NCBI GenBank assembly: GCA_030159075.1
Contig: BROG01000462.1
Span: 1-64,000, forward strand
Origin: Atrina japonica
Lineage: Eukaryota; Mollusca; Bivalvia; Pterioida; Pinnidae
DNA: 64,000 nucleotides
Reading direction: 5' to 3'
The stretch's first letter is position 1. Each line of letters opens with the position of its first letter. Below the pieces are notes generated by a model, which made no database searches, was not told the DNA's origin, and saw nothing but the letters and a program-made list of their open reading frames with translations. Positions 46,201-49,200 of the stretch are shown here, one piece after another. Both the position numbers and the translations under genes were made by a program.

Positions 46201-49200
46201 GTTTCATGTCAGGTTTTTCCTGTGTATGATATTCTAAGATAGAATAATACTATATATGTATAATACGTTTGTAAAATTCATCCAATTATTGTTGAAGAAG
46301 CATGATTTTGATACATTTACCTAAATCTATAAACGTCGTCAACTTTTAGGTCTACGGCAATGACCGGCAGGTTCCGGATTCCGGACAAACAGCAACAGCT
46401 TTTTTAAGCGGAGTAAAAACTAACTGGGAAGTACTTGGACTCAGGGATACAGTGCAAATCCGTAATTGCTCATCACAGAAACAACCGGATATAAAAGTCA
46501 AATCGATTCTGAAACATGCGCAATCAGCAGGTATACATTTTGAATTTACAAAATTGCATTTTATCCGATAATACCAAATTCAATATGTAAAAATTATTGG
46601 AAAATGACATCGGCAATGACAAATGCGCTCCGAGGATACTTCATAATATTATACATATGAGAAATTTGATAAAACAAATTATATCATGAGTAAACAATAT
46701 TCCTATGTATTAAGATGTGTAATTGTGAAAGTTTTGAACCGATACAGTATACCTAAGTGTGCCATTAAATGAAACACTATAATTATGAATCACCAGTTTT
46801 GTACAAGTACATTACATCGGATATATTTGTTTTAAAATATACATAGTAACTGGCAGTGACTGGTTAGCGTAATTCACAGGTATAATCACACCACTTATAG
46901 ATTGGTATAACAGTCAACCACCACACCAAACTTGTAGATCCTCCTAACAAAGTATAGGTGTTACTATAAACTACTACACAGGTGTATTTGTGGATCCGTT
47001 TGTCATTGTACACTTTACATAATTACGTCAAAGAAAACAAAAACGTTAAAAATACATCCGGTTACCTGTAGTAATTTATTCTCCTTTTCCATTTGAAGTT
47101 GAGCAAATTGAAAAATATGCAAATTAACTTTTTTTGTTTTTAAATTTCGCAGATATTTTCAAAGTGCGTTACTTTAATTGTCATTGATATATTGTTGACA
47201 TAGAACGATATACCATACCTTGACAACCTTGCCCGATTACGTTCGAAGTAGTAAGACATCTTATACTATAAACAGTATAGGCTACTCACAATTAAGTTTT
47301 CTTGTTGTGTATATTAAATTCAACAACATATAAAGTTGATAAATGTTCTTCATCCATATCACAGATGTATATCATACACTATTAATTGATAAATGATATT
47401 GTTGTTAAAAGGACAACGCACTGATGGATCCAGGACTGTATTTTGTTACGACCAAAACCTACTTCTAATTAAATGTTCATTATAAACCCAACCATTCTAT
47501 TCCCGTACATTTATATTCAATTTACCTGTTGCTTTTAAAACATCTATTACATAGTAATTAAACATTTCCAATGTAAAGATATCAGATACCAAAGTATCAA
47601 TCTTCTGGATCCAGTTAAACAACAGGTTGTTAGATTTAACATACAGTTAGCCCATTCGACTGTACGTTAAATCTAAACACCTGTTCTGCCATTGGGTCTT
47701 GGATGTTTGAGAGACAATAAACAAAGCTGATGAATATTGAACAAGCAAGGATCTCGGAATATCCAGAGGTGGGAGCAGGTGCTATGGAGGATAAAACATC
47801 ACCCGTTGACCTGTCACACACAATTCGAGTCCACAATAAAATTCAAAATGAAATGATTGAGAAATAATCCCACGTCACAAGTAGTTCACATAACAATAAA
47901 ACAACTAGATTTACAATTGGTATTGAATAAACTTACTTTGCTTATTGATAGAAACAACAATTATGTTTGTGGTGTTCGGGGGCGTGGTCTTTCGGCGGGC
48001 TGTCGGCATTCCTATGGGAAACGATTGTGTTCCTTTGTTGGCCGACCTGTTCCTTTGTTCATACGAAGCAGACTTCATTCGGAGACTGCTGAATCGGGAG
48101 AGGAAGGGGTTGGCGGTGTCCTTTGGTTTGGCATTTGGATGTGTCGACGACGTTTTGTCAATTGATAATGACAATTTTCGTGCATATGTCAGTGCGATGT
48201 GTCCCAGCGAACTACAGATTGGGGGTACAGCGGGGTCGGGCACGCGCGCTTCGTGCTTGGACGTTTTGCTTGATGTGGGCACGGACGGGGGATTGGCGGC
48301 TGGGCTGTGCGATGGGCGCGGCGATTTCGGCTTTCCCGTAGTGGGTTTTCCACATTTGAGTAGTGGTGTCCCTCGGTCGCCCGCGTTTGGGGTTTGTGTT
48401 TCACAGGTGATCCGATGTGCCAGGGCGTGTACAGCGTGTGAAGATTTCATATGCAGAGGTGGACTGCTCACTGACAAATTATTGACACAGGGATATCGGA
48501 GGCCGCGTTTAATGTCAACGTTCCGCAAGTTTTACGGTCGGTATGGTAGTCGTGTTTGCGACTGCTCTGTTTCACTGGGTGAAATGTTGGGTTGCCTTTT
48601 CGTTGGCGGTTGTTGAGACGTCTGTGCCAATTGTGACGAGGATACACTCTTCACTTGTTTCATTGGACTTGGCTGTGGACTCACGGCGGGTGTGGCCGGT
48701 CGACAGGGGATGCTTGCTCCTCCATGGCACCTGATCCCACCTCTTGGTTTCCAGAGGTCCGTGTTTGTCCATTTTTACCGGATTTATATCTATGTCCTGG
48801 ACGTTCTGTTGATTTATGCTTTGGTATCTGAAATTTTTATATTATTATATATGCTAAACAAATTAATCCAATTTCTTTTGATTACAGGTAAAGCAACTGG
48901 TGTCGTAACAACTACTAGAATAACACATGCTACCCCTGCTGCTGCATATGCTTACGCTGCCAGCAGAAACTGGGAGTCTGATGCAGATATGGTGGGTGTG
49001 ACGGGTGGATGTACAGATATTGCTCATCAACTAGTCTATGATAATAAGGATATTCAGGTGTGTAACTTTGATCTATGTCACATTTTGTCTCCTTTTTACG
49101 TGTGAGTGATTTGTATATCATACAAGATAACAGCTCATATGAAGAGTAAGTGGTTCTGTTTGAATTCTATCCAGTCTAAAGCCATATACCTTTTACAAGT

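What the first reader, a model, noticed from the sequence alone, without database searches (positions are those of the whole stretch)
47945..48842. A-to-G hypermutated retroelement copy inside phosphatase intron 3
Seen: over 48,474-48,838, against the reverse complement of 59,640-60,007, I count about 17 A-to-G changes on the coding strand and about three others, after leaving out sites where the reference copy is itself the odd one. The RT part is denser: CAACAAAC becomes CGGCGGGC, ATAATAAATT becomes GTAGTGGGTT, and YIDD becomes CVDD. Flanking intron and other copies lack the bias, so the change was probably made before integration. Known: ADAR deamination of double-stranded RNA reads as A-to-G. 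Inference: sense RNA of the element was edited, then reverse transcribed and inserted, leaving a genomic fossil of RNA editing against a retroelement. Several edited sites follow G, which ADAR usually disfavours, so another strand-specific deaminase (T-to-C on the other strand) is possible.
Basis: partly seen in the sequence, partly recalled or inferred. Interest (0 to 1): 0.88.

Follow-up and report, generated by a model that had tools for sequence, protein, structure and literature searches.

The report
RNA-editing scars in retroelement copies
An apparently animal genome holds some thirty copies of one retroelement in which patches of the coding strand have nearly half of their A's changed to G, most likely because the host's RNA-editing enzyme (ADAR) rewrote the element's RNA before it was copied back into DNA, which would make them inherited records of RNA editing against a genomic parasite.

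Summary
Confirmed and extended. The copy at 47957-48845 differs from the majority of 24 unedited family copies by 122 substitutions: 113 are A-to-G on the element's sense strand, none is T-to-C. It is not alone. Two pattern searches of the 832 Mb assembly plus alignment gave 33 A-to-G hypermutated loci (21 + 12; one probably a duplicate, one weak). An equally strict antisense pattern gave 0. In edited zones of the first 21, 44.7% of A became G against 1.2% T-to-C. By 5' neighbour the rate is T .61, A .54, C .36, G .24; 3' G is best. This is the published metazoan ADAR preference (PMC9989829, PMC6651903, passages). Patches have sharp, copy-specific edges. The edited copies are not one clade. 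Other repeats in the fetched sequence show no such bias. The genome encodes ADAR-type genes. Best explanation: ADAR hyperediting of the element's sense RNA, then reverse transcription and insertion. Enzyme, dsRNA partner and timing are inferred; no RNA data were available. Ten searches of the held library listed no precedent.

The parts
47957..48845 (+). A-to-G hypermutated, 5'-truncated copy of the retroelement (firm core; longest alignment 47901-48852)
   Evidence: 113 A-to-G of 122 substitutions against 24 unedited copies, 0 T-to-C; extent
47930..48613 (+). Open RT frame of 228 codons that survives the editing; A-to-G change cannot create a stop codon
   Evidence: no internal stop (the one stop counted is the terminal one)
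48140..48151 (+). RT catalytic motif, CVDD here, YIDD in unedited copies
48257..48331 (+). Densest 75-base bin of editing: 22 of 29 A's
48632..48845 (+). 3' part largely spared: 6 of 39 A's edited
59629..60189 (-).
7462..8216 (+). Unedited relative
21001..21577 (+). Unedited relative
23566..23770 (-). Unedited relative of the RT part
38329..38476 (-). Unedited relative of the RT part
48887..49057 (+). Exon piece of the host gene (alkaline phosphatase) after the intron that holds the copy
   Evidence: PF00245, E 2.3e-15

Best explanation
This copy and some thirty others in the genome belong to one likely Penelope-like retroelement whose sense RNA was most likely deaminated A-to-I by a host ADAR while double-stranded, then reverse transcribed (inosine would be read as G) and inserted, so that RNA editing was written into DNA. 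Shown: the A-to-G excess is confined to the element's sense strand, is clustered in patches, differs from copy to copy, and follows the published metazoan ADAR neighbour preference; 24 unedited copies of the same family and the other repeats sampled lack it; most edited copies keep the family's 3' end and are cut at different 5' points, as retrotransposed copies are. Inferred: ADAR as the enzyme (ADAR-type genes are present); editing before integration; the double-stranded partner, perhaps antisense transcripts from some of the roughly 7,350 places of the family in both orientations; and mobilisation in trans, since 11 of the first 21 edited copies lost a catalytic Asp of YIDD by A-to-G. The spared last ~190 nt may mean that only RNAs with a near-intact 3' end are primed (untested).
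For: Window copy 113 A-to-G of 122, 0 T-to-C. Sense edited-state pattern 22 places, reversed-pattern control 0; antisense pattern of the same strictness 0; all places of the sense stretch 7354. 21 of the 22 are hypermutated on alignment, 39 to 230 A-to-G each; second stretch 16 places, 4 already known, 12 of 12 new ones with A-to-G excess. Edited zones of the 21: A-to-G 1977/4428, T-to-C 49/4153; 5' T 649/1073, A 724/1350, C 360/990, G 201/848; same 5' order in the four copies not chosen by a pattern. Sharp edges, e.g. L013 2/489 then 95/271. Different 5' ends. Not one clade. 627 other repeat pairs unbiased. ADAR-type genes: 18 PF02137 matches on 5 contigs, HAE, PCG and CSDK motifs in L042 (motif names recalled). 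Published preference: PMC9989829 and PMC6651903, passages read.
Against: No RNA was seen, so editing itself is not observed. The dsRNA partner is unknown, and inverted neighbours of edited copies are not themselves antisense-edited (L057, L071). Edited sites are shared more than independence predicts (7187 against 5481 over 210 pairs) and edited copies cluster more than shuffled labels (7 of 500 shuffles as low). In the later set A after A (.448) slightly exceeds A after T (.415), and 3' A (.433) exceeds 3' G (.379). The genome-wide number of the antisense control stretch was never returned (it is in 24 of 24 unedited copies examined).
Confidence: 0.88

Rival explanations
1. DNA-level deamination or mutagenesis: an adenine deaminase, or an error-prone polymerase with a WA hotspot, changed the sense strand during or after insertion, or edited cDNA converted older copies.
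For: Some edited patches are internal with sharp edges inside longer unedited copies (L013, L059, L062, L067), as conversion by edited cDNA would also give; a WA preference is also that of polymerase eta (recalled).
Against: A-to-T 52 and A-to-C 24 against A-to-G 1977 do not suit a polymerase; confinement to the element's sense strand (antisense pattern 0) and absence in other repeats, flanks included, do not suit a DNA process; editing of the DNA strand in a cDNA:RNA hybrid would give T-to-C on the sense strand (reasoning).
Confidence: 0.06
2. Error-prone reverse transcription at A's, as in diversity-generating retroelements.
For: Change is restricted to A of the template strand.
Against: Product is almost only G (1977 of 2053 changes at A), change is patchy, depends on the 5' neighbour as ADAR does, and 24 unedited copies of the same RT family show A-to-G 85/12728.
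Confidence: 0.02
3. Old GC-rich subfamily: the G sites are inherited by a lineage of copies rather than made per copy.
For: Edited copies share more sites than expected by chance and are somewhat clustered on the tree. One edited copy seems to have been duplicated later (L062, L087).
Against: T-to-C is not raised; zones, sites and 5' ends differ; no shared non-A derived state in the four compared; one clade rejected at AU p 0.024; 80 of 253 A's edited in none and 68 in only one of four copies.
Confidence: 0.02
4. Sequencing, assembly or cDNA-contamination artefact.
For: Clusters of one mismatch type have been sequencing artefacts before (PMC2873906, passages).
Against: The same stretch reads as A in thousands of other places (first listed places of 7354); this copy sits inside a 599,817-base contig with intron on both sides; the neighbour preference is that of an enzyme.
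Confidence: 0.02

Closest known systems
ADAR hyperediting of repeat-derived dsRNA in metazoans (PMC9989829; mollusc virus RNA in PMC6651903)
   Same: A-to-G in clusters on the transcribed strand; 5' T/A favoured and G disfavoured; young repeats as targets
   Different: There it is seen in RNA and leaves the genome unchanged; here the result lies in genomic DNA
APOBEC-type DNA editing of retroelements (clusters in PMC2873906)
   Same: Deaminase-type hypermutation fixed in inserted retroelement copies
   Different: There G-to-A from cytosine deamination of minus-strand cDNA; here A-to-G of the sense strand, with G-to-A low
Biased A-to-G hypermutation of RNA viruses ascribed to ADAR (recalled)
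   Same: One-sided A-to-G patches that become heritable in the replicating genome
   Different: Here an endogenous retroelement and the host genome
Diversity-generating retroelements (recalled)
   Same: Retroelement-borne change at adenines of one strand
   Different: There A goes to any base; here A-to-C plus A-to-T are 76 against 1977 A-to-G
Penelope-like elements with N-terminal GIY-YIG (Naiad type, recalled; paper not held)
   Same: GIY-YIG-like segment before an RT, 3.3 kb, 5' truncation, a 3' fragment directly before a full copy
   Different: Both domains score below Pfam cut-offs; no hammerhead found; no RT phylogeny made

Membership tests
ADAR hyperediting | A-to-G on one (transcribed) strand only | tested here: met
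   1977/4428 A-to-G against 49/4153 T-to-C; antisense pattern 0
ADAR hyperediting | 5' neighbour U/A favoured, G disfavoured; weaker 3' G preference | tested here: met
   order holds in 21 of 21 copies as max(T,A) above max(C,G), G lowest in 19. In 11 later copies 3' A exceeds 3' G
ADAR hyperediting | Clustered in patches as in a dsRNA stretch | tested here: met
   change points; bins
ADAR hyperediting | Double-stranded RNA substrate | not testable with these tools
   no RNA data; copies exist in both orientations (3747 and 3607)
ADAR hyperediting | Host has catalytically plausible ADAR | tested here: met
   18 PF02137 matches on 5 contigs; HAE, PCG, CSDK motifs in L042 (recalled as catalytic)
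APOBEC DNA editing | G-to-A excess on the plus strand | tested here: not met
   G-to-A 69/2268 in edited zones
RIP-like C-to-T mutation | C-to-T and G-to-A on both strands | tested here: not met
   C-to-T 126/2742, G-to-A 69/2268
Diversity-generating retroelement | A to any base | tested here: not met
   A-to-T 52, A-to-C 24, A-to-G 1977
Penelope-like element | Reverse transcriptase with YxDD | tested here: met
   YIDD in unedited copies; RVT_1 E 5.1e-4 but 20.3 bits against cut-off 29.6
Penelope-like element | GIY-YIG endonuclease domain | tested here: inconclusive
   PF01541 E 0.0014, 19.3 bits against cut-off 22.6, upstream of the RT
Penelope-like element | Hammerhead ribozyme (common, not universal; recalled) | tested here: not met
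   none in L072, L073, L075 at E up to 1
Penelope-like element | RT phylogeny within the clade | not tested
   no reference set was at hand

The most novel reading that the evidence does not exclude
ADAR acts here as a germline restriction factor that writes: it hyperedits retroelement RNA, the edited RNA is still retrotransposed, in trans because its own RT is often catalytically dead, and the genome accumulates an inherited, datable archive of RNA editing against the element, the RNA-level counterpart of APOBEC scars. Protein-level signs of the same in metagenomic relatives (8 of 186) suggest that it is not confined to this species.
Probability: 0.6. Interest if true: 0.93.

Novelty: new variant of a known kind. 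Interest (0 to 1): 0.88.

Why it matters
RNA editing is expected to leave no trace in DNA. [quoted passage not shown] Here such a trace lies in the genome, in some thirty copies of different ages (non-A-to-G divergence 0.8% to 9.3% in the first 21). The strength, sequence preference, extent and timing of ADAR action on a retroelement could then be read from assemblies by counting one substitution type. It would also mean that edited RNA remains a usable template and that templates encoding a dead RT still get inserted.

Tried and rejected
Pfam on the window copy's frame gave nothing; RT and a weak GIY-YIG showed only in relatives and in longer copies. PDB sequence search with a relative: no match. 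Viral-contig scan: 17 pattern stretches, 0 relatives. Genome contigs: 51 stretches, 3 relatives, all in sulfur-oxidiser symbiont-type records. Rfam search of L072, L073, L075: no hammerhead, one sub-threshold snoRNA match. The older inverted fragment at 47713-47880 was considered as a hairpin partner and rejected: it pairs with the least edited part of the copy. Inverted neighbours of edited copies are not antisense-edited (L057, L071), so no edited hairpin unit was seen. In one search the loosest comparator makes 7462-8216 look G-to-A rich (48 of 124); this mirrors the edited copy being its only relative there, and falls to 14 of 64 with two comparators. By best single alignment only 19 of the 22 pattern places looked edited; alignment forced through the pattern site raised this to 21. 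The 5' preference included the pattern stretch, so repeats it without.

Full report
WHAT WAS CLAIMED.

OBSERVATION. It holds, to the number. Over 47957-48845 it is 113 A-to-G of 122, with 0 T-to-C, out of 253 A's. Against the nearest window copy, 59629-60189, it is 56 A-to-G of 64. None of the 14 other window copies tabulated shows the bias with at least two comparators, and in 465 window repeat pairs (both directions) every asymmetry with p below 1e-3 involves this copy. The next exon is alkaline phosphatase.

ONE OF MANY. The genome search answered only part of the time. With the whole copy as query, 40 of 8105 candidates were scored and 30 fetched, this copy included. Three others of those 30 are hypermutated: L013 83 A-to-G of 89, L014 68 of 79, L016 72 of 86; two more are slightly skewed (L032 10 of 16, L023 9 of 22); the other 24 have 3 to 14 substitutions with 1 to 6 A-to-G each. 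A 35-base pattern that requires at least 4 of 7 ADAR-favoured A's to read G found 22 places, 0 for the reversed pattern. They include these four. On alignment over up to 2.4 kb, 21 of the 22 are hypermutated, with 39 to 230 A-to-G each (median 97); L065 is not, 23 of 99. All places of that stretch, edited or not, number 7354, so about 0.3% are edited there. A pattern of the same strictness for editing of the antisense strand found 0; its stretch is present in 24 of 24 unedited copies examined and 3 times in the window, against 2 for the sense stretch, but its genome-wide number was never returned. A second sense stretch (at least 5 of 8) found 16 places: 4 were known already; the 12 others were fetched and all 12 have an A-to-G excess, 19 to 93 A-to-G with 0 to 6 T-to-C; L079 is the weakest, 19 of 45. 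That makes 33 loci, 32 if L087 is a duplicate of L062 (15 differences in 512 bases, same contig). The overlap of the two lists (21, 16, 4) suggests of the order of 80 edited copies, a rough figure because the stretches are neither independent nor equally likely to be edited.

SIGNATURE. In edited 100-base bins of the 21 copies, leaving out the pattern stretch: A-to-G 1977/4428 (44.7%), T-to-C 49/4153 (1.2%), G-to-A 69/2268, C-to-T 126/2742, A-to-T 52, A-to-C 24. By 5' neighbour: T 649/1073, A 724/1350, C 360/990, G 201/848. By 3' neighbour: G 301/578, A 646/1359, T 555/1263, C 432/1061. The higher of T and A exceeds the higher of C and G in 21 of 21 copies, and G is lowest in 19 of 21 (pattern stretch included). 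The four copies not chosen by a pattern give the same 5' order, T 131/257, A 106/258, C 57/232, G 35/219, with 3' A 105/258, G 54/134, T 102/325, C 68/249. Eleven of the 12 later copies (those with at least 25 A-to-G) give 5' A .448, T .415, C .258, G .205 and 3' A .433, G .379, C .302, T .276. Published: across metazoans 5' U and A are favoured and G disfavoured, with a weaker, less conserved 3' preference, G favoured and U disfavoured in most species (PMC9989829, passages); in oyster and abalone TA, AA and CA are strong and GA weak, without a strong 3' preference (PMC6651903, passages).

PER-COPY EVENTS. Edited zones differ between copies and can have sharp edges inside continuous copies: L013 2/489 A's edited before position 1453 of the comparison coordinate and 95/271 after; L059 2/290 then 146/297; L062 15/569 then 82/132; L067 15/446 then 73/119. 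Sixteen of the 21 reach the family's 3' end, and 5' ends are scattered. The four copies compared in detail share no derived state outside A sites. A tree on 654 non-A columns does not hold the edited copies together (10 changes; AU p 0.024; only 2 of 42 inner branches well supported), though they are more clustered than shuffled labels (7 of 500 as low). Shared edited sites exceed independence, 7187 against 5481 over 210 pairs; neighbour context accounts for part of this, zones and perhaps RNA structure for the rest (inference). Divergence at other changes runs from 0.8% (L062) to 9.3% (L064), so editing probably recurred over time.

CONTROLS. With the family masked, 627 repeat pairs in 208 kb of fetched sequence and window, flanks of edited copies included, show no strand-biased pair; the best p is 0.065 (some fetched stretches overlap each other). 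The 24 unedited copies have A-to-G 85/12728 and T-to-C 48/12500. Their few A-to-G changes are also most frequent after T (30/3308) and least after C (9/2916), a pattern unlike the edited copies for G (14/2411).

THE ELEMENT. Two long copies, L072 4203-7473 and L073 3941-7222, are 96.5% identical over 3.28 kb. They hold a GIY-YIG-like segment (PF01541, E 0.0014, below cut-off) upstream of an RT (RVT_1, E 5.1e-4, below cut-off). I read this as a Penelope-like element with an N-terminal nuclease (the Naiad type, recalled; the paper is not held). L072 has a 3' fragment of the family (3777-4165) just before the full copy. No hammerhead.

MECHANISM. Shown: sense-strand-only, patchy, copy-specific A-to-G with ADAR context; ADAR-type genes in the genome (18 PF02137 matches on 5 contigs; HAE, PCG and CSDK motifs in L042). 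Inferred: the sense RNA became double-stranded, perhaps with antisense RNA of the family, was deaminated, and served as template. Editing of the DNA strand in a cDNA:RNA hybrid would give T-to-C on the sense strand (reasoning), which is not raised. In 11 of 21 copies A-to-G removed a catalytic Asp of YIDD (L016, L051, L052, L053, L054, L055, L057, L063, L066, L067, L068), so if editing preceded translation the RT came from another transcript. In the 15 copies whose joined alignment reaches the 3' end, the last ~190 bases are edited at 57/462 against 1196/3135 upstream, where context predicts 144: perhaps only RNAs with a near-intact 3' end are primed, or that end is rarely double-stranded.

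BEYOND THIS GENOME. Two protein searches listed 120 of 440 and 120 of 684 relatives, together 186 proteins. Against the family consensus 8 of the 186 show the same protein-level asymmetry as the window copy (37/1), counted as residue changes reachable by A-to-G against by G-to-A: P0035 60/1, P0005 45/2, P0014 39/3, P0051 35/1, P0036 36/3, P0117 17/0, P0111 19/4, P0141 12/1, with 0 to 4 T-to-C-type changes; sites and zones differ, and P0117 and P0036 are changed over only part of their length. Seven of the 8 lie on contigs of 991 to 2146 bases, P0111 on one of 2.2 Mb. Their DNA could not be fetched, and it is unknown whether the short contigs come from DNA or RNA.

LITERATURE. Ten searches of the held open-access library listed no paper whose title or abstract start reports A-to-G hypermutated genomic retroelement copies ascribed to ADAR. 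Subscription papers and preprints are not held, and most listed papers were not opened, so absence is not proved. Passages were read in six. PMC4982230 calls a role of ADAR editing in suppressing Alu retrotransposition by mutation not yet determined. PMC2873906 reports more G-to-A/C-to-T than A-to-G/T-to-C clusters in retrotransposon DNA traces (247 against 129 in human; 114 against 49 in mouse IAP). PMC5974252 describes ADAR1 restraint of L1 and Alu as independent of editing.

LIMITS. No RNA data, no species name, no sister genome. 'Animal' rests on ADAR-type genes and an intron-bearing alkaline phosphatase. Comparators are majority bases of fetched copies. The tool scores only the best candidates, so counts are lower bounds.

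Noticed in passing
P0035, P0005, P0014, P0051, P0036, P0117, P0111, P0141: Relatives of the RT in public data, mostly short metagenomic contigs, with protein-level A-to-G-type hypermutation over different zones; possible hyperedited copies or hyperedited RNA in other organisms.
   Followed up: partly
L001, L002, L003: Relatives of this animal-type RT lie in genome records of thiotrophic mussel-symbiont bacteria and a Thioglobus MAG; host contamination or transfer, not resolved.
   Followed up: no
L062 (C55:475546-475580) and L087 (C55:478162-479047): Two places 3.3 kb apart carry nearly the same edited pattern (15 differences in 512), as if an edited copy had been duplicated later.
   Followed up: partly
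L023, L032: Two copies with a mild A-to-G excess (9 of 22 and 10 of 16), perhaps lightly edited or edited over a small patch.
   Followed up: no
window 47713-47880: A 69% identical older fragment of the family's 3' part in inverted orientation just upstream of the edited copy.
   Followed up: partly
L072 3777-4165: A 3' fragment of the family lies just before a full-length copy in the same orientation, a tandem arrangement.
   Followed up: no
window 14508-15110 and 61301-61737: Tandem arrays: about 50-base and about 24-base units, seen as self-matches.
   Followed up: no
edited copies, last ~190 bases (window 48632-48845 for the one here): The 3' end is edited well below context expectation (57 against 144 expected in 15 copies), possibly selection for templates that can still be primed.
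   Followed up: partly
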